From an uncultured Gammaproteobacteria bacterium (GTDB taxonomy: Bacteria; Pseudomonadota; Gammaproteobacteria; Arenicellales; UBA868), in NCBI GenBank assembly GCA_913051905.1, contig CAJXBY010000140.1, positions 1 through 6,771 of the forward strand: a stretch of DNA of 6,771 nucleotides. The letters are read 5' to 3'. The translations under genes were made by a program, and so were the position numbers. Of the stretch, positions 77 through 6,771 are shown piece after piece. The notes under the pieces are model-generated. The model was not told the DNA's origin. It did not search any database and worked only from the letters and a program-made list of their open reading frames with translations. How positions within the stretch are numbered: the first letter of the stretch is position 1; every line of letters starts with the position of its first letter.

Positions 77-1003
77 TCATTGTTTTTCTTCCTCCCCTTC
101 TCCCCGGTCTTTTTCCACCGCCATGGGGTCCGAAGCAGGTAGCGCCGGAGGCGTCTGGAGTTCGACGGTCACTTCGGGTTCGAGTGTCTCGTTGTCGGAA
201 GACAAGGATTCAGGCTGTTCTTCTGAGGGTGGTGGTACGTATCCGGAGAAGCCGATACCACTGGCGCTTTTTCTAGCCGGGGTGAAATAGATCACCTGAA
301 CAGGTATTTCGTCGGTTTTGAAACGACTGCGGTACCTGGAGAGTTCTGACCGCAGAATGCCATAGGTCAGAAACACTCTGCAGTCAGTGCAAGTCGGTCC
401 CTGATGGTCCACACGCGGTTCGCCGTTGACCCAAACTCTCAAATACCCATCGACCGCAGACCATTTGACGTTAACGCTGATTTCATGCCATTGGCCCAGT
501 AGCAGGTCTTCATCAATCAGCGAGGAATAATGGTGCTCCTTTGCGACGCGATTGCCAAGCCAGAAGACGCCCGTGCTGCCGACTTCGAACGTCCAGACAG
601 GTTTCGCACCGCGGTCTAGAAATTGACCGTGAATGCTTCTGGCCGGATAAATGTTGGTGTAATCCTCGGGGAAATAGACCTGCCATTGGTACCATTGTTC
701 CCCCGTCAGTGGTGTATCGGGCATCAGTCTTTCTGCGACTTCAGAGCGTTCCAACTCTCTTTTACAGTCGTTACTGACTTTGCCAACGGTGCAGTCGCCC
801 GGCCGGACCTCGAACCTCTGGATCACGTCATGGCTCTTGATTCCCGCAGGATCATCGACCTCCTGGTAGCCCCATTCGGTGCTGTTTAGGAAGCGAATAA
901 GATCAGCAGCCTGACTGAATCGAGGGAAAACCGAGAGAGCGAGTAACGTCATGCCCAGGACGAACATGGCGCGGCAACGAAGCTGATTGATTCCCCCATT
1001 CAT
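77..1003 (-). CDS. Secreted polysaccharide-lyase-like protein (heparin lyase I-like fold)
   Basis: This is a 308-residue exported protein. I chose the ATG at 1003 because AGAGGA (complement of 1015-1020) lies 11 bases upstream and because it gives a clean signal peptide: Arg-containing N-region, hydrophobic core at about 13-26 (FVLGMTLLALSVF), and probable cleavage after SQA at 30-32. The frame stays open up to 1117, but that extension would bury the signal peptide. The mature part resembles the polysaccharide lyase / heparin lyase I-like family (PF14099, a jelly-roll beta-sandwich). It has the CKRELERSE segment (80-88), GEQWYQWQVYFPEDY (101-115), an IHGQFLD segment (124-130), and the GQWHEISVNVKW and GYLRVWVNGE strands (170-181, 186-195) typical of LamG-like sandwiches. 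Cysteines pair as C71/C80 and C205/C208, which suits a periplasmic or extracellular site. Residues 256-308 form a Pro/Glu/Ser-rich tail, probably disordered. Family assignment is by pattern; substrate and lyase activity are not shown. Confidence 0.85.
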   Translation of the reverse strand: MNGGINQLRCRAMFVLGMTLLALSVFPRFSQAADLIRFLNSTEWGYQEVDDPAGIKSHDVIQRFEVRPGDCTVGKVSNDCKRELERSEVAERLMPDTPLTGEQWYQWQVYFPEDYTNIYPARSIHGQFLDRGAKPVWTFEVGSTGVFWLGNRVAKEHHYSSLIDEDLLLGQWHEISVNVKWSAVDGYLRVWVNGEPRVDHQGPTCTDCRVFLTYGILRSELSRYRSRFKTDEIPVQVIYFTPARKSASGIGFSGYVPPPSEEQPESLSSDNETLEPEVTVELQTPPALPASDPMAVEKDRGEGEEEKQ

Positions 1004-1074
1004 TGGAAAACCGATCCTCTGAGGTTTCCCTGTCTCATTCGAAACTTTCCGACAATCCCTATCCCTGAAACTGA

Positions 1075-1105
1075 TTGACAATATCAATACGGTTCGAACT
1101 ATATC
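1075..1105 (+). promoter_or_regulatory. Candidate sigma-70 promoter for the rightward SDR gene
   Basis: A perfect TTGACA lies at 1075-1080. The best -10 match is TATATC at 1100-1105 (four of six consensus bases), after a 19-base spacer, which is longer than the preferred 17. It would leave an untranslated leader of roughly 105-110 bases before the ATG at 1219. An inverted repeat, GGTGAA (1121-1126) and TTCACC (1141-1146), lies just downstream and could be an operator or leader hairpin. A second -10-like hexamer, CATAAT at 1163-1168, has no good -35. This is read by eye and weak. Confidence 0.28.
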
Positions 1106-1218
1106 CCGGAATGACACCGAGGTGAATCGAAAGTCGTCGTTTCACCCAGCGCCACAATCGGACATAATGGTGCCACGTTTGGGTTATTCTGGTTATGTGC
1201 TGGAGGGCCGCGTGTCCT

Positions 1219-1992
1219 ATGGTGTTTGAAAAGCGGTTTGAGGGGAAAGTTGCGATCGTCACCGGAGCCGGCTCTGGAATCGGTCAAGCTGTTGCGGAAC
1301 GTCTCGTGGCCGAGTCGGCCTCTGTACTGGCAGTCGACAACGACGAGAACAGACTTTCGGCTCTAGGTGAGGAGTTACCATCCTTCAAAAGGGCCGCGTG
1401 CGATGTCAGTAGCGCGGATGACTGTGCGGCCCGCGTCACTGACGCCGTCGAGCATTTCGGCCGCCTTGATATAGTGATCAATTCAGCCGGCATTACGGCC
1501 CGGTCTCTTTCTGAGAGTACCAGTTTCGAGGAGAAGTGGGATGCAGTTATGCGGGTCAATCTAAAGGGCACTATGCTGATGTGCCAGGCTGCCGTGCCGG
1601 TTCTTCAGAAAATGGGTGGCGGATCTATTGTCAACCTTGCTTCGATAATGGGACTGGTGGGTTATGATCCAAGCCTGCCTCTATCAGACGGGTTTTCCCC
1701 CTACCCCCCGAGCAAAGGGGGTGTGCTGCAAGTCACTCGTGACCTTGGTGCGCGACTGGCCCGCGAGAAAGTCCGGGTCAACGCTGTGTGCCCGGGTTTT
1801 GCGTACACCAGTCTTACTCAGAGTCTCGCTGATTCGCCAGAGACTCACCAGGCCCTGATCAGGATGCATCCGATGGGGCGCCTTGGTGACGCGGAAGAAA
1901 TTGCCAACGTGGTTCTTTTTCTGGCTTCGGAAGAGGCATCTTTTGTAACGGGCGCTGCCTGGGCAGTCGACGGTGGCTACACGGCGGTGTGA
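1219..1992 (+). CDS. Classical short-chain dehydrogenase/reductase, probably NAD-dependent
   Basis: This 257-residue cytoplasmic oxidoreductase has the full classical SDR signature: glycine-rich cofactor loop TGAGSGIG (15-22), CDV (61-63), NSAG (88-91), catalytic Asn114 (VNLKG), Ser142, and Tyr162/Lys166 in YPPSK, followed by the conserved VRVNAVCPG segment. Asp40 at the end of the second strand (LAVDND) suits NAD(H) over NADP(H). I chose ATG 1219 because GGAGGG (1202-1207) is 11 bases upstream; an earlier in-frame start at 1195 would lie upstream of that site. Nineteen residues separate Ser142 from Tyr162, against about twelve in most classical SDRs, so there is an insertion near the active site (DPSLPLSDGFSP). 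The family oxidises or reduces secondary alcohols or ketones; the substrate here is unknown. Because it lies near a beta-keto-acid enzyme, a beta-hydroxy-acid dehydrogenase is a reasonable guess. Confidence 0.95.
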   Translation: MVFEKRFEGKVAIVTGAGSGIGQAVAERLVAESASVLAVDNDENRLSALGEELPSFKRAACDVSSADDCAARVTDAVEHFGRLDIVINSAGITARSLSESTSFEEKWDAVMRVNLKGTMLMCQAAVPVLQKMGGGSIVNLASIMGLVGYDPSLPLSDGFSPYPPSKGGVLQVTRDLGARLAREKVRVNAVCPGFAYTSLTQSLADSPETHQALIRMHPMGRLGDAEEIANVVLFLASEEASFVTGAAWAVDGGYTAV

Positions 1993-2234: not shown

Positions 2235-2360
2235 TTATCCTCCGACCATCAGGCTGGCGTAGTAGTACATTGAACCAGCGATGACGAGGAGCCAAAGAAT
2301 AGCCACAAAATTCGAGCGAATGAAGGCCCGAACCTGCTCGAAGAGTTTCTTCAGGTCCAT
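2235..2360 (-). CDS. 41-residue single-pass membrane peptide (hypothetical)
   Basis: Reading leftward from ATG 2360 to TAA 2235 gives 41 residues. The N-terminal part is basic and amphipathic (MDLKKLFEQVRAFIRSN). A hydrophobic segment of about 20-22 residues follows (about 18-39, FVAILWLLVIAGSMYYYASL), and the tail is short (MVGG). The layout predicts one transmembrane helix with the N-terminus in the cytoplasm by the positive-inside rule. GCAGG lies five bases before the ATG, a modest ribosome binding site. It is 83 bases downstream of the BKACE stop on the same strand, so it may share that transcript. Small membrane peptides of this kind often modulate a transporter or enzyme complex. I recognise no family. 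Confidence 0.6.
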   Translation of the reverse strand: MDLKKLFEQVRAFIRSNFVAILWLLVIAGSMYYYASLMVGG

Positions 2361-2443: not shown

Positions 2444-3331
2444 TTAGGAGCTCGGTTTCTTCAGACCCAGTATCTCTCGTGCCTCGGTCACGCTGGCGAC
2501 TTGCCCACCCAGGCTGCGGATAATCTGGACGGATTTTTCAACCAGAGCCGCATTACCCGGTGTCTTGACTCCTTTCTCCAGGTAGACGGTATCCTCCATT
2601 CCAATCCGGCAGTGGCCGCCCAAAAGAAAAGCCTGTGCGAGCATCGGGAATGCGTGCCGGCTCGCGCCGAATGCCGCCCATTCTGCACCATCCGGTAGCA
2701 TGGATCGAGCCTGAACTAGGGCCTCGGTTGTACTGTCCATTCCGTAATTGACGCCCATTACCAATTGAAACAACAAAGGCATTTTGAGCGTGCCTTCTTT
2801 CATGAGGTCCCGTCCCATGCGGATATCGCCTGTATCGAAGACCTCGAGTTCTGGCTTGACGCCGGCGCTGTAGATGCGCTCGGCCATCACACGTATGGAA
2901 GCGGGGTAGTTAATTACTGCACCACCCCCGAACCACATCGTGTTGAGGTCTAGGCTGCAGATTTCGGGTTTGAGTTCGACAACGTGTTCGGTGCGGACTT
3001 CCGGCGGCGCAAGAGTCGTTGCCTCCGCAGCTTTCGCTGGATCCCCTTCCGTCGGGACGTAGCGCCCACCCGGCCCAGTGGTCAGGTTGATGATCATGTC
3101 CGTATCGCTTTGTCGAATCCTCTTGACTACTTCCCTGTAGTATTCGAGCACCATACTGGGCCGACCGCTTTCCGGGTCCCGCACATGGATGTGGCAGATC
3201 GCAGCGCCCTGTTTCACAGCGGCGATACAGTCATTTGCGATCTCTTCAGGCGTGACGGGCAGATTGCTGTTGTGTTCGCGTGTTGTGAAGCTTCCTGTTA
3301 CCGCACAGCTCAGAATGGTCGGTTTCATCAT
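2444..3331 (-). CDS. Beta-keto acid cleavage enzyme (BKACE, DUF849 family)
   Basis: This 295-residue cytoplasmic enzyme belongs to the BKACE family, formerly called 3-keto-5-aminohexanoate cleavage enzyme. Members use a divalent metal, normally zinc, in a TIM barrel to react a beta-keto acid with acetyl-CoA, giving acetoacetate and a new acyl-CoA. Family landmarks: LPVTPEEIA (24-32), the metal-binding HIHVRDP with His47 and His49, INLTTG (81-86), the GASRH segment (222-226), and GHCRIGMED (239-247) with the third metal ligand Glu246 plus Arg242 and Asp247. These match His46, His48, Glu230, Arg226 and Asp231 of the Cloacimonas enzyme Kce, as I recall it. Glu14 of Kce, which contacts the substrate amine, aligns with Phe15 here (TGSF), so the substrate is probably not 3-keto-5-aminohexanoate. 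I chose ATG 3331 because GGTGGGAG (complement of 3337-3344) ends five bases upstream; an in-frame GTG at 3343 lies within that site. The gene is divergent from the aminotransferase operon. Confidence 0.95.
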   Translation of the reverse strand: MMKPTILSCAVTGSFTTREHNSNLPVTPEEIANDCIAAVKQGAAICHIHVRDPESGRPSMVLEYYREVVKRIRQSDTDMIINLTTGPGGRYVPTEGDPAKAAEATTLAPPEVRTEHVVELKPEICSLDLNTMWFGGGAVINYPASIRVMAERIYSAGVKPELEVFDTGDIRMGRDLMKEGTLKMPLLFQLVMGVNYGMDSTTEALVQARSMLPDGAEWAAFGASRHAFPMLAQAFLLGGHCRIGMEDTVYLEKGVKTPGNAALVEKSVQIIRSLGGQVASVTEAREILGLKKPSS

Positions 3332-3521
3332 TTTTGCTCCCACCTGCAGGTCTTTCAGTGTGATTTGAATGCTGCCTGGGCCAGGTTGTCAGAGTGCTGG
3401 TTTATGATTTGGGTTTAGAGACAGTGTTAATCATACCGCTTCCAGCGGGCCCACGGAAACAGTACACAACCAATCGGAGTAAAATCACCGATCATTGGAC
3501 CATCGCAAGAATTACTTTCTC
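3332..3521. promoter_or_regulatory. Divergent intergenic region between BKACE and aminotransferase genes
   Basis: These 190 bases must hold the promoters for the leftward BKACE gene and the rightward operon. There are TATGAT hexamers (five of six against TATAAT) in both orientations: rightward at 3403-3408 and leftward at 3435-3430. Neither has a convincing -35 at normal spacing. CCGCT/AGCGG arms (3436-3440 and 3444-3448) form a small inverted repeat beside the leftward hexamer and might be part of an operator. GGTGGGAG (complement of 3337-3344) is the BKACE ribosome binding site. The boundaries are certain; the individual sites are guesses. Confidence 0.4.
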
Positions 3522-4892
3522 ATGGAATCTGACAACTCTGCTATCGTCTCTGCTTACCGAGCCCAATCAAAGGAATCGGCTGAACTCGCCGGGCTGGCGG
3601 GCCAGCTGTTTCCAAGCGGCTTGACCCATGATTCTCGCTATCTGTTGCCCTACGGTATCTATGTCGAACGGGCCCAAGGTTCGAGGAAATGGGACGTGGA
3701 CGGCAACGAATATGTTGACTACTTTGGCGGGCATGGTGCCCTGCTTCTGGGGCACAGCCATCCAGAAGTCATTGCTGCTGCCCACGCGGCATTGGATGCT
3801 GGTTCGCATTTTGGGGCCGGCCACCAGCATGAACTGCGGTGGGCCCAGATTGTCCAGCGATTATTACCCGGTGCCGAGCGAGTGCGGTTTACCTCGTCGG
3901 GTACAGAGGCGACTCATCTGGCCCTTCGACTGGCCCGCGCTCACACCGGTCGCAACAAAATACTCCGCCTGAAAGGTCATTTCCATGGCTGGAACGATCA
4001 CATGACTTCCGGATACAGTTCTCACTTTGACGGCTCCCCTACTCCCGGGGTTCTGCCGGGAATTGCCGAGGGAATTCGACTCGTCGACCCGGGTGACCTT
4101 GACGCCATCGACCAGGCGCTAAGGTCTGACAACGACATTGCCGGCATTATTCTGGAGCCGACGGGTTCTACTTTCGGGATGGTTCCCTTGGATAGTGACT
4201 ATCTGACCGGACTCAGAGAACTGACCCAACGCCACAAAGTGCTACTGATTTTTGACGAAGTCGTGACTGGCTTTCGAGTATCTCGCGGAGGGGCACAGGC
4301 TCATCTCGGCATCCGCCCTGATCTGACCACCCTGGCCAAAATCCTAGGTGGCGGCCTGCCGGCGGCAGCGGTAACCGGTCGTGAAGATGTCTTAGAAGCG
4401 CTCGATTTCGGAGTTGCACTGGCAAATAAGCGGGAAAAGATACAGCATCAGGGGACCTTCAATGCCAACCCGGTTTCAGCTGCTGCAGGATACACTGCGC
4501 TTTCGATCATCGAGTCGACTGACGCTTGTGAGAAAGCAAACGCCTACGGTGCCCAGTTACGAGCCCGGTTTAACGAGGTTCTTGCTGCCGAGGGTATTCA
4601 ATGGGCGGCCTACGGAACATATTCCGGTTTTCATCTTTTCACTAACCCGCAGAATCGCAAACTGGACCCCCTGTCCTTTGACCCTGACACAATTGACTGG
4701 TCGGAACTCAAGTCGAATGCAACACTTTCGGCAGATCGCCTCCGGCTGGCCATGCTGATCAATGGTGTGGATATCACGGGCTGGCCCGGCGGTGTGATTT
4801 CCGCCGCCCACGATGACAACGATCTAGAGCACACAGTGGGTGCGTTCGAGGAATCGCTGAAAATGCTTCGTGCGGACGGCGTCTTGAGTTAA
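3522..4892 (+). CDS. Class-III PLP aminotransferase, glutamate-1-semialdehyde-aminomutase-like
   Basis: This 456-residue cytoplasmic fold-type-I PLP enzyme shows the class-III landmarks in order: DVDGNEYVDYFGG (58-70), GHSHP (77-81), SSGTEA for phosphate binding (125-130), KGHFHGWND (151-159), LEPTGS (211-216), FDEVVTGFR (244-252) with Asp245 contacting the pyridine nitrogen, TLAKILGGGLP (270-280) with Lys273 as the Schiff-base lysine, and GTFNANPVSAAAG (311-323). It resembles glutamate-1-semialdehyde 2,1-aminomutase most, but the catabolic neighbours argue against a haem-biosynthesis role. Beta-amino-acid (beta-phenylalanine-type) transaminases fall in the same branch. Such an enzyme would make a beta-keto acid, the substrate type of the divergent BKACE. 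The ATG at 3522 is preferred by length, though its ribosome site is weak; a TTG at 3495 would add nine residues. It is the first gene of the probable operon, 26 bases before the amidohydrolase. Confidence 0.93.
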   Translation: MESDNSAIVSAYRAQSKESAELAGLAGQLFPSGLTHDSRYLLPYGIYVERAQGSRKWDVDGNEYVDYFGGHGALLLGHSHPEVIAAAHAALDAGSHFGAGHQHELRWAQIVQRLLPGAERVRFTSSGTEATHLALRLARAHTGRNKILRLKGHFHGWNDHMTSGYSSHFDGSPTPGVLPGIAEGIRLVDPGDLDAIDQALRSDNDIAGIILEPTGSTFGMVPLDSDYLTGLRELTQRHKVLLIFDEVVTGFRVSRGGAQAHLGIRPDLTTLAKILGGGLPAAAVTGREDVLEALDFGVALANKREKIQHQGTFNANPVSAAAGYTALSIIESTDACEKANAYGAQLRARFNEVLAAEGIQWAAYGTYSGFHLFTNPQNRKLDPLSFDPDTIDWSELKSNATLSADRLRLAMLINGVDITGWPGGVISAAHDDNDLEHTVGAFEESLKMLRADGVLS

Positions 4893-4918
4893 GTCACAGT
4901 ACTTGAGCCGAAGGTCCG

Positions 4919-6364
4919 GTGGCAAGAAGCACTGTTGTACGGAACATAGCCTGGCTGGTGGCCTGGAACGGCAGCCGGCACGTCTACTTCCGGGGCGCAG
5001 ACCTGGTTTTTGAAGAGCGTGAGATTACTTTTTTAGGCCGAGATTATCCCGGTAGTGCAGAGCGGGAGATAGATGGCAGTGATTTGCTGGTCATTCCCGG
5101 GCTGATCGATATTCATACCCATCTTTCATCGGAGCCTATTCGAAAGGGCATTACCGACGAGACCGTCTCACCTGGTTTTTGGCACAGCTCTTTGTATGAG
5201 CACCTACCTGTATTCGATCCAGTCGACGATAGCGGGCGTATGGCCTGCCTGAAAGTTTCTTTGTCGGAACTGTTGTTATCCGGCGTCACGACCGTGGCCG
5301 ATCTTTCACCACCTTTCGATGGTTGGCTGGATGCGCTTGCTGAAAGTGGAATCCGTGCAGTTGTCGCGCCTTTGTTCAGAGATGCCCGCTGGTATACCCG
5401 CAACGGCCACGCACTGGAATACGAGTGGGACGAGGCGGCTGGCCGACAGGCATTCCGTAAAGCCCAGACCCTGCTGGACCAGGCCCTTGCTCATCCCAGT
5501 GGGCGAGTCAGCGGTATGGTGTCGCCCTCTCAAGTCGATACCTGTGGAGAGCAATTACTGCGAGACAGTTACGCTTTCGCTGAGGAAAAGAATCTGCCCT
5601 GGACCATACACGCTGCGCAGTCGGTAACCGAGTTTCTCGAGATGCAGCGGCGAAACGGTACAACACCGATTCAGTGGCTGGACGATATCGGGGTATTGGC
5701 TGAGCGAAGCACAATTGCGCACTGTATATTTCTTGATCATCATCCCTGGCTGCACTGGACCAGCCAGAGGGACCTGGGACTGCTCGCCGAGACTAAAGCG
5801 ACTGTTGCTCATTGCCCCACTGTATTCTCGCGCCGCGGAATCGCATTGAACACGTTTGGCCACTATCTGGATCATGGGGTGCGTTTAGCGACCGGAACTG
5901 ACACCTATCCTCATAACTTGCTGGACGAGGTGCGAACCGCCGCGATCGTAGCCAGAACCGCCGGCCAGAATGTTGAAGATGTCACGTATTTGGAGCTGTT
6001 CAGTGCGGCGACGCTTGGTGGCGCTGCGGCGTTGGGACGAGAGGACATAGGCCGCCTGGCCGTCGGTTGTAAAGCAGATTTTGCGTGTATAGATTTGACG
6101 CACCCTGCTATGAAGCCGTTACGAGAGCCATTGCGCACCCTGCTGGTCGTAGCGGCCGATCGGGCCGTACGGGATGTTTTTGTCGACGGAGAGCAGGTCG
6201 TTCAAGACGGTTTGGTTCAGACCATCGACCATGCTGCTGAACTGGAGCATCTTCAGGTTGCCCAGGAGCGAATGCTGGCCCAGGTCCCGGACCGGGACTG
6301 GGCCGGACGGACGGTGGATGAACTTGCACCGATGATGCTGGAGACTGTCGAATCTCTGGTTTGA
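4919..6364 (+). CDS. Metal-dependent amidohydrolase, ATZ/TRZ (TrzN/AtzA-like) type
   Basis: This 481-residue cytoplasmic hydrolase has an N-terminal beta-sandwich segment followed by a TIM barrel, with the sandwich completed at the C-terminus (DVFVDGEQVVQDG, 419-431). Metal site: GLIDIHTHLS with His66 and His68, then His231 (HAAQ) and Asp328 (TGTDTYPHN). Other conserved positions are His268 (IAHCIFL) and His298 (VAHCP). The branch hydrolyses or deaminates C-N bonds, or dechlorinates, in triazines, guanine-like rings and related compounds; the substrate here is unknown. TrzN and AtzA carry a catalytic Glu three residues after the third His, but this protein has Gln234. Glu238 is nearby. The GTG start has AAGG (4911-4914) four bases upstream and lies 26 bases after the aminotransferase stop, so the two are probably cotranscribed. 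A possible role is releasing the amine substrate of the aminotransferase. Confidence 0.93.
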   Translation: MARSTVVRNIAWLVAWNGSRHVYFRGADLVFEEREITFLGRDYPGSAEREIDGSDLLVIPGLIDIHTHLSSEPIRKGITDETVSPGFWHSSLYEHLPVFDPVDDSGRMACLKVSLSELLLSGVTTVADLSPPFDGWLDALAESGIRAVVAPLFRDARWYTRNGHALEYEWDEAAGRQAFRKAQTLLDQALAHPSGRVSGMVSPSQVDTCGEQLLRDSYAFAEEKNLPWTIHAAQSVTEFLEMQRRNGTTPIQWLDDIGVLAERSTIAHCIFLDHHPWLHWTSQRDLGLLAETKATVAHCPTVFSRRGIALNTFGHYLDHGVRLATGTDTYPHNLLDEVRTAAIVARTAGQNVEDVTYLELFSAATLGGAAALGREDIGRLAVGCKADFACIDLTHPAMKPLREPLRTLLVVAADRAVRDVFVDGEQVVQDGLVQTIDHAAELEHLQVAQERMLAQVPDRDWAGRTVDELAPMMLETVESLV

Positions 6365-6406
6365 GTCTTGCAGATCTCGCGATCTAGGGTCGGGTTTTCA
6401 TAGTTT

Positions 6407-6413
6407 AAGGAGG
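6407..6413 (+). promoter_or_regulatory. Strong Shine-Dalgarno for the terminal SDR
   Basis: AAGGAGG stands eight bases before the ATG at 6422 and is the best ribosome binding site in the window. It fixes the SDR start. The 57-base gap after the amidohydrolase also contains a weak AGATC/GATCT inverted repeat (6372-6376 and 6381-6385) without a following T-run, so no terminator separates the two genes. Confidence 0.8.
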
Positions 6414-6421
6414 CTAAGCAC

Positions 6422-6771
6422 ATGAGCCATTCTCTGGAAGGCAAGGTGGTGTGGATTACGGGTGGTGGTACAGGTATCGGTCGAGCCGCGGCCAAAGTGC
6501 TATCCAGAATCGGGGCCCGTGTGGCCTTGTCGGGCCGGCGCAAGTCGGCGCTGGACGACACGCTGAAAGAATTGACAGGTGGTCCAGGCGCGGGCCTTGC
6601 GCTGCCGCTAGATGTCGCGGATACGGCGTCAGTTGAGGCGGCGGCAAAAGAGATCCAGGCCTCGCTCGGTGAGGTTGATATTCTGGTGAACAGCGCAGGC
6701 CTCAACTTGGCCAAAAGGCGCTACCACGAGATGTCTGTAGAAGACTGGCAACAGGTGATTGCAGCCAACCT
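6422..6771 (+). CDS. Short-chain dehydrogenase/reductase, NADP type (3' end outside window)
   Basis: The first 116 codons of a classical SDR are present; the catalytic Ser and YxxxK lie beyond the window end. Visible are the cofactor loop TGGGTGIG (13-20), PLDV (62-65), NSAG (90-93), and the start of the helix-4 segment ending VIAAN, whose Asn is the usual catalytic-tetrad Asn. Arg39-Arg40 after the second strand (ALSGRR) suit NADP(H), unlike the Asp40 of the SDR at 1219, so the two are probably not redundant. The start is fixed by AAGGAGG. As the third gene of the probable aminotransferase-amidohydrolase operon it may act on an intermediate of the same pathway. Its substrate cannot be told. 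Confidence 0.93.
   Translation, partial: MSHSLEGKVVWITGGGTGIGRAAAKVLSRIGARVALSGRRKSALDDTLKELTGGPGAGLALPLDVADTASVEAAAKEIQASLGEVDILVNSAGLNLAKRRYHEMSVEDWQQVIAAN

What the first reader, a model, noticed from the sequence alone, without database searches (positions are those of the whole stretch)
2444..6771. Unassigned catabolic module: BKACE + class-III aminotransferase + amidohydrolase + SDRs
Seen: four recognisable enzymes arranged divergently around one shared promoter region, plus a second SDR nearby. Established: BKACE enzymes consume beta-keto acids with acetyl-CoA, and class-III transaminases of the GSA-aminomutase-like branch include beta-amino-acid transaminases that make beta-keto acids. 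Inference: the amidohydrolase frees or deaminates a nitrogen compound, the transaminase and/or SDR turns it into a beta-keto acid, and BKACE splits that into acetoacetate and an acyl-CoA. I know of no named pathway with exactly this set.
Basis: partly seen in the sequence, partly recalled or inferred. Interest (0 to 1): 0.72.

Follow-up and report, generated by a model that had tools for sequence, protein, structure and literature searches.

The report
Marine organic-acid breakdown gene module
A small group of enzyme genes in uncultivated marine bacteria probably breaks down an unidentified nitrogen-containing organic acid; the gene set is real and partly conserved, but each enzyme belongs to a known kind and the substrate is unknown.

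Summary
The window encodes an intact beta-keto acid cleavage enzyme (BKACE, 2444-3328, -), a class III aminotransferase (AT, 3522-4892, +), a COG0402-type amidohydrolase (AMH, 4919-6364, +), the start of one SDR (6422-end, +) and another SDR (1195-1992, +). A missed 41-aa ORF lies at 2235-2360 (-). One related marine MAG (L001) keeps the whole set in the same order, at dS above 1.2 for the five long genes compared. In three further genomes of the group BKACE and AMH stand divergently with both SDRs, but without AT. So the core is BKACE//AMH-SDR, and AT joins it in one lineage only. Of 80 loci with AT relatives, only L001 has BKACE or AMH nearby. AT is not the housekeeping aminomutase; its nearest solved relative is D-phenylglycine aminotransferase, not the beta-transaminases. 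BKACE belongs to a subfamily with Arg94 and Phe169, shared with the flavophos enzyme BsfD. Best reading: a peripheral catabolic module that hydrolyses and deaminates an acidic N-compound, oxidises it to a beta-keto acid and splits it with acetyl-CoA. Substrate and reaction order are inferred. New variant of a known kind, moderate interest.

The parts
1195..1992 (+). SDR1, short-chain dehydrogenase/reductase (likely beta-hydroxy-acid dehydrogenase; inference)
   Evidence: Pfam adh_short_C2 207 bits; NCBIfam PRK07231 227 bits, cut-off 215; next to the BKACE in L001 and L106-L109 at 60-80% identity
2235..2360 (-). 41-aa ORF, by eye a single membrane helix, downstream of and co-directional with BKACE
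   Evidence: conserved W..VI..SMYYY..LM ORF in L106, L107, L108, L109 and in L001 with a GTG start; dN/dS 0.22, dS 0.90 against L001
2444..3328 (-). BKACE (PF05853), subfamily with Arg94 and Phe169 (numbered from GTG 3343; subtract 5 to number from ATG 3328)
   Evidence: 315 bits; H51, H53, E250, R94, F169 in 121 of 121 (window plus the 120 listed homologues); nearest solved sequence 9zsc/BsfD 351 bits
3329..3521 (.). divergent intergenic region BKACE/AT (193 bp); no recognisable sigma-70 promoter
3522..4892 (+). class III PLP aminotransferase, D-phenylglycine-aminotransferase-like; Lys273 (PLP lysine by family knowledge), Arg39
   Evidence: 376 bits to 6g1f/6dvs, 374 to 2cy8, 236 bits to the best GSA aminomutase; K273 and R39 invariant in the 21 aligned sequences
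4919..6364 (+). COG0402-type amidohydrolase; H66, H68, H231, H268, D328 present, Gln234 where AtzA and isocytosine deaminase have Glu
6422..6771 (+). SDR2, N-terminal part, cut by the window end
   Evidence: full-length 267-aa copy in L001:12871-13674

Best explanation
A peripheral catabolic module of an uncultivated marine gammaproteobacterial group. The conserved core is BKACE standing divergently to an AMH-SDR2 operon, with SDR1 and a 41-aa ORF on the BKACE side; in the window's lineage a D-phenylglycine-aminotransferase-like AT stands at the front of the AMH operon. Likely working: AMH hydrolyses a C-N (or similar) bond of an acidic N-containing compound; AT removes an amino group; an SDR oxidises a beta-hydroxyl to a beta-keto acid; BKACE, with its metal and Arg94 holding a second acidic group, transfers the acetyl part to acetyl-CoA, giving acetoacetate and an acyl-CoA. 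Shown: the genes, their conservation, their families and their conserved residues. Inferred: substrate, reaction order, operon, and that all enzymes serve one pathway.
For: Whole set in L001, same order and strands. BKACE//AMH divergent pair with SDR1 and SDR2 in G010, G015, G020; the G017 contig starts just before BKACE. AT-AMH gap 26 bp in the window and 27 bp in L001, kept at dS 1.2-1.5, which speaks against a recent chance insertion. Two more family genomes, G004 and G009, hold an 80% BKACE in a different cluster with analogous parts: SDR, another class III AT, class IV AT, HyuA/HyuB, a TRZ/ATZ amidohydrolase and a BhcC-like aldolase (families scanned for G004). In 16 annotated plasmid stretches around 50-60% BKACEs an SDR is listed in 12, directly beside BKACE in 8; an amidohydrolase in 4 (two match AMH at 26%); an 'aspartate aminotransferase family' gene beside it in 2 (one matches AT at 29%, the other gave no match at E 1e-8); a catechol-type dioxygenase in 7. 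SDR+BKACE+lactonase+MFS is the genetically supported deoxyribonate pathway (PMC6365646, passages read).
Against: AT is beside BKACE or AMH in 1 of 80 AT loci; in other family genomes it sits elsewhere and G015 has no match at E<=1e-90. Four further chromosomal BKACE loci (L185-L188) show no match to AMH or AT, though L186 has a HutF-type amidohydrolase beside a histidine-lyase-like gene 0.8 kb from its BKACE. In seven short loci (L092, L105, L134-L138; at most 1.5 kb of flank) an SDR is beside BKACE in 2, HyuB in 1, AMH or AT in none. Five plasmid stretches around 45-53% AMH relatives list no BKACE. Of 50 AT genomes, 10 have a BKACE at E<=1e-90 and 24 an AMH at E<=1e-120, none of them at the AT locus. 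No transporter or regulator in the window names the substrate. The 16 plasmid stretches were picked by me from the 40 rows listed of 300 records, annotated ones first, so they are no random sample, and the plasmid gene tables are incomplete.
Confidence: 0.5

Rival explanations
1. The core (BKACE, AMH, SDRs) is one pathway, but AT is an independent amide/D-amino-acid salvage enzyme that settled in front of AMH by rearrangement.
For: Within 8 kb of AT relatives lie HyuA in 13 of 80 loci and an amidase in 10 of 80; L002 has an M19 dipeptidase, an Amidohydro_3 protein and an M24 peptidase nearby, L008 their relatives; the nearest solved relative is D-phenylglycine aminotransferase, described as stereo-inverting in the abstract start of PMC3503884 (listing); three family genomes with the core lack AT in it.
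Against: AT-AMH order and spacing kept at high synonymous divergence; since AT relatives are often near a C-N hydrolase and AMH is one, the window may simply show the same theme.
Confidence: 0.25
2. One reading: AT turns a beta-amino acid (for example beta-glutamate) directly into a beta-keto acid that BKACE splits.
For: Arg94 fits a second acidic group in the BKACE substrate (Arg91 of BsfD lies near the phosphonate, PMC12871164 section 8); a class III AT working with a BKACE-family enzyme is known in lysine fermentation (Kat and Kce, PMC3149608, passages).
Against: AT scores 376 bits to D-phenylglycine aminotransferase and only 159-171 to the solved beta-transaminases; its relatives' neighbours point to amides and lactams; three relatives have the core without AT.
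Confidence: 0.12
3. BKACE works like BsfD: C-acetylation with decarboxylation, giving a beta-diketone, so the module makes rather than degrades something.
For: The nearest solved sequence is BsfD, and the two residues its authors use to explain its chemistry and substrate (Phe166, Arg91) are both present.
Against: Phe is in 17 of 17 distinct BKACE genes (28 rows), in 16 of 16 plasmid ones (four are in both) and in 3c6c, many beside catabolic-looking genes, so it does not by itself mark the BsfD reaction; no phosphonate gene was seen in the window or among the 10 L001 ORFs scanned.
Confidence: 0.1

Closest known systems
Deoxyribonate catabolism of Pseudomonas simiae (SDR, BKACE, lactonase, MFS; PMC6365646)
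   Same: An SDR makes a beta-keto acid proposed to be split by a BKACE; a hydrolase and MFS genes are clustered with them (passages read). L001 has an MFS gene a few genes away, L106 and L107 its relatives.
   Different: Its hydrolase is a lactonase, no aminotransferase or COG0402 amidohydrolase is named in the passages; no sequence of that BKACE was compared here.
Lysine fermentation Kce and Kat (PMC3149608)
   Same: A BKACE-family enzyme works with a class III, HemL-like aminotransferase (passages read).
   Different: Kat acts after the cleavage, on 3-aminobutyryl-CoA; the window BKACE scores 245 bits against a 382 cut-off for Kce and has Phe where PMC12871164 names Tyr145 of Kce.
BsfD, flavophos biosynthesis, Burkholderia (preprint PMC12871164; PDB 9zsc)
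   Same: Nearest solved sequence, 351 bits; Arg91 and Phe166 shared.
   Different: BsfD acts in a phosphonate cluster with lumazine synthase (a pepM, lumazine synthase and BKACE group is in L172); no such gene was seen in the window or the L001 ORFs scanned.
D-phenylglycine aminotransferase (PDB 2cy8, 6dvs, 6g1f)
   Same: Full-length similarity of AT, 374-376 bits.
   Different: Activity untested; the window enzyme sits with BKACE and an amidohydrolase.
Caprolactam pathway, Pseudomonas jessenii (PMC6061476)
   Same: Lactam opening followed by transamination, the theme seen around AT relatives with HyuA/HyuB (passages read).
   Different: No BKACE in the passages read; HyuA here scores 502 and 567 bits and HyuB 329, under the caprolactamase cut-offs of 1000.

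Membership tests
BKACE (PF05853) | family profile over the curated cut-off | tested here: met
   315 bits against 24.8
BKACE (PF05853) | metal ligands H-x-H and Glu | tested here: met
   H51, H53, E250 in 121 of 121; His48, His50, Glu247 in BsfD
BKACE (PF05853) | active-site Tyr that PMC12871164 says all BKACE sequences contain | tested here: not met
   Phe169 in 121 of 121 and in 28 of 28 rows, 17 distinct genes; read by eye, one search shows Tyr in 2y7d, 3lot, 3e02 and Phe in 3c6c and 9zsc
BKACE (PF05853) | beta-keto acid + acetyl-CoA to acetoacetate + acyl-CoA | not testable with these tools
   needs an enzyme assay
BsfD-type phosphonate enzyme | Arg91 and Phe166 equivalents | tested here: met
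BsfD-type phosphonate enzyme | pepM and lumazine synthase in the cluster | tested here: not met
   scope: the six window genes and the 10 L001 flanking ORFs scanned, none of them; not every short L001 ORF was scanned
Glutamate-1-semialdehyde aminomutase (HemL) | TIGR00713 cut-off 527 bits | tested here: not met
   292 bits; separate hemL over the cut-off in 7 of 7 family genomes
D-phenylglycine aminotransferase | full-length similarity above other class III branches in the PDB | tested here: met
   376 bits against 236 for the best aminomutase
D-phenylglycine aminotransferase | stereo-inverting transamination of D-amino acids | not testable with these tools
   needs an assay
Class III beta-transaminase | closest solved relatives are beta-transaminases | tested here: not met
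   171 (6iz9), 170 (2yku) and 159 bits (4ao9) against 376
COG0402-type amidohydrolase | metal-site H-x-H, His, His, Asp | tested here: met
   H66, H231, H268, D328 in 121 of 121, H68 in 120 of 121
COG0402-type amidohydrolase | Glu after the third His, as in AtzA and isocytosine deaminase | tested here: not met
   Gln234 in 121 of 121, alignment
Deoxyribonate pathway | SDR + BKACE + lactonase | tested here: inconclusive
   SDR and BKACE present, no lactonase family among the window genes; sequences of that pathway not compared

The most novel reading that the evidence does not exclude
The Arg94/Phe169 BKACE subfamily, the window's included, is not a plain cleavage family: like BsfD it may acetylate and decarboxylate 3-oxo acids bearing a second acidic group, and here that reaction is coupled to a Gln-type COG0402 hydrolase and a D-phenylglycine-aminotransferase-like enzyme in an undescribed pathway of marine bacteria.
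Probability: 0.1. Interest if true: 0.65.

Novelty: new variant of a known kind. Interest (0 to 1): 0.36.

Why it matters
It gives a testable gene set for an unknown organic-nitrogen compound used by uncultivated marine bacteria. It also shows that the residues offered to explain BsfD's unusual chemistry are shared by a whole subfamily with catabolic-looking neighbours, so one assay on such an enzyme would tell whether the subfamily cleaves or acetylates.

Tried and rejected
Aminomutase reading of AT: rejected by score and by a separate hemL. Recent chance insertion or assembly chimera: made unlikely by L001. Shared sigma-70 promoter: none found. Riboflavin catabolism as the source of acetoacetate: passages read show a pyrone hydrolysis/retroaldol route, no BKACE. 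A test for enrichment of C-N hydrolases directly beside AT (6 of 34 against 15 of 354, p 0.006) is circular, since the query set was taken from the same neighbourhoods, and is not used as evidence; the ORF caller there may also pick shadow ORFs in GC-rich loci. A Fisher test of AT with BKACE over 27 genomes (6 of 7 against 2 of 20, p 0.0006) is confounded by kinship and counts as AT only matches of 63% or more, leaving out G021 (51%) and G006 (41%). AMH at E<=1e-120 in 5 of 398 phylum genomes, G001 among them; at 1e-170 in 0 of 43 genomes of the order of G003 (no positive control in it). BKACE at E<=1e-115 in 2 of 398, G001 among them, and at 1e-110 in 4 of 150 relatives of G115. The plasmid search with AT gave 2 records at 37-38% identity. 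A fold search with the BKACE model (pLDDT 86.2) put 3c6c first (TM 0.87); BsfD 9zsc was not among the 50 rows shown. Literature: the listings showed no paper whose title or abstract start describes BKACE with AT and amidohydrolase in one cluster; only that open-licence library was searched, lists were capped, and the key BKACE paper (Bastard et al. 2014) was not read and is known here only through passages of PMC4922564 and PMC12133276.
Full report
1. What is there. The window encodes six large genes: a PF14099 polysaccharide-lyase-like protein (77-1117, -), SDR1 (1195-1992, +), BKACE (2444-3328, -), AT (3522-4892, +), AMH (4919-6364, +) and the first part of SDR2 (6422-end, +). BKACE and AT start 193 bp apart on opposite strands. 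AT, AMH and SDR2 are close-set on one strand (gaps 26 and 57 bp), so they look like one operon. No sigma-70-like promoter was found in 3250-3600. A 41-aa ORF (2235-2360, -), by eye a single membrane helix, lies between BKACE and SDR1; it is conserved in L106-L109 and in L001. No whole genome is held for the window.

2. It is conserved. Among the 80 loci with AT relatives kept from the genome collection, L001 (MAG, Proteobacteria SP340) carries every window gene in the same order, 65-91% identical. Five gene pairs have dS 1.2-1.5 and dN/dS 0.03-0.17; the small ORF has dN/dS 0.22 (SDR2 not compared). The other 79 loci have no match to BKACE or AMH within 8 kb, though only 32 of the 80 have 8 kb on both sides.

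3. The core is wider than the AT. Of 100 relatives of the L001 genome G001, itself among them, 8 have a BKACE at E<=1e-90; 7 of these are 78-91% identical to the window's. In G010, G015 and G020 the BKACE stands divergently to AMH (65-66% identical), with SDR2 after AMH and with SDR1, the lyase-like gene, a phosphoribosyltransferase and a two-component pair on the other side, as in L001; AT is not between them. G017 shows the BKACE side only, as its contig starts there. AT relatives at 66-67% exist elsewhere in G004, G009, G010, G017 and G020, and none at E<=1e-90 in G015. After SDR2 come an ABM-domain gene, a ChaC-like gene and an MFS gene; in L001 another SDR lies in between. So the core is BKACE//AMH-SDR2 with SDR1, and AT joined or left it in one lineage; which, is not settled.

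4. A second cluster type. In G004 and G009 an 80% identical BKACE lies in HyuA-HyuB-BKACE-BhcC-like aldolase, next to a TRZ/ATZ amidohydrolase (25-26% to AMH), a class III AT (32-34% to the window AT), a class IV AT and an SDR (families scanned for G004). Kinds of partner recur with different genes, which is mild evidence for a shared chemistry. Against this, four further chromosomal BKACE loci (57-74%) have no match to AMH or AT; one of the four has an SDR. L186 has a dipeptide ABC transporter, a PF00206 lyase and, 0.8 kb on, a HutF-type amidohydrolase near an aromatic-amino-acid lyase; L187 has a tripartite tricarboxylate transporter. Seven short loci (L092, L105, L134-L138) show an SDR beside BKACE in 2, HyuB in 1, AMH or AT in none. 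Five plasmid stretches around AMH relatives (45-53%) list no BKACE; ABC transporters are listed in all five.

5. BKACE. Metal ligands are present. Arg94 and Phe169 are in 121 of 121 (window plus 120 listed homologues). In the 28 rows, which stand for 17 distinct genes, Phe169 is in all, Arg94 in 14 of 17 genes (three at 42-44% have Asp). Both are in 16 of 16 plasmid BKACEs (four of them also). BsfD's authors propose Phe166 (for Tyr) for its different chemistry and a unique Arg91 near the phosphonate (preprint PMC12871164; abstract, section 8 and discussion read). Both residues are thus subfamily features; the alignment, read by eye, shows Phe also in 3c6c. In 16 plasmid stretches (chosen by me from 40 listed rows of 300 records) an SDR is listed in 12, a catechol-type dioxygenase in 7 (one only in a wider stretch), an amidohydrolase in 4, an 'aspartate aminotransferase family' gene beside BKACE in 2; one is a flavophos-type group with pepM and lumazine synthase. 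In two of them the amidohydrolase matches AMH (26%). I infer a beta-keto acid with a second acidic group.

6. AT. Lys273 and Arg39 are invariant in 21 aligned sequences. AT scores 376 bits to D-phenylglycine aminotransferase, 236 to the best aminomutase and 159-171 to the beta-transaminases. Among its relatives HyuA lies within 8 kb in 13 of 80 loci and an amidase in 10 of 80; L002 adds an M19 dipeptidase, an Amidohydro_3 protein and an M24 peptidase. The theme is release of an amine from an amide or lactam followed by transamination, as in caprolactam breakdown (PMC6061476, passages).

8. Co-occurrence at genome level. Of 50 AT genomes (of 79 beside L001), 10 have a BKACE at E<=1e-90 and 24 an AMH at E<=1e-120; by contig, contig length or distance none lies at the AT locus, and AMH and BKACE are neighbours only in G010 and G020 among them.

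9. Verdict. A real, moderately conserved, probably catabolic module built of known enzyme kinds; closest to the SDR-BKACE-hydrolase logic of deoxyribonate breakdown (PMC6365646, passages).

Noticed in passing
window 2235-2360 (-); L001 8712-8837 (-): Conserved 39-41-aa ORF, by eye a membrane helix, between BKACE and SDR1 in six loci, window included; function unknown.
   Followed up: partly
window 77-1117 (-): PF14099 polysaccharide-lyase-like gene, syntenic in the group but only 40-45% identical between the two lineages, less conserved than its neighbours.
   Followed up: no
window 2444-3328, residues 94 and 169: The two BsfD residues used to explain flavophos chemistry (Arg91, Phe166) are invariant in 121 of 121 close homologues.
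   Followed up: partly
window 4919-6364, residue 234: Gln in place of the usual catalytic Glu in a COG0402 subfamily (121 of 121).
   Followed up: partly
L096 (G001:C65:19928-20809): Second, 42% identical BKACE match in the L001 genome with one stop codon inside it.
   Followed up: no
L172 4001-4873: Burkholderia stagnalis plasmid with pepM, lumazine synthase and a BKACE: a flavophos-type group on a plasmid.
   Followed up: no
L167/L178, Rhizobium bangladeshense plasmid p4: Co-directional run dioxygenase-SDR-aldehyde dehydrogenase-amidohydrolase (26% to AMH)-BKACE-alcohol dehydrogenase-cupin, possibly a pathway for an aromatic nitrogen compound.
   Followed up: partly
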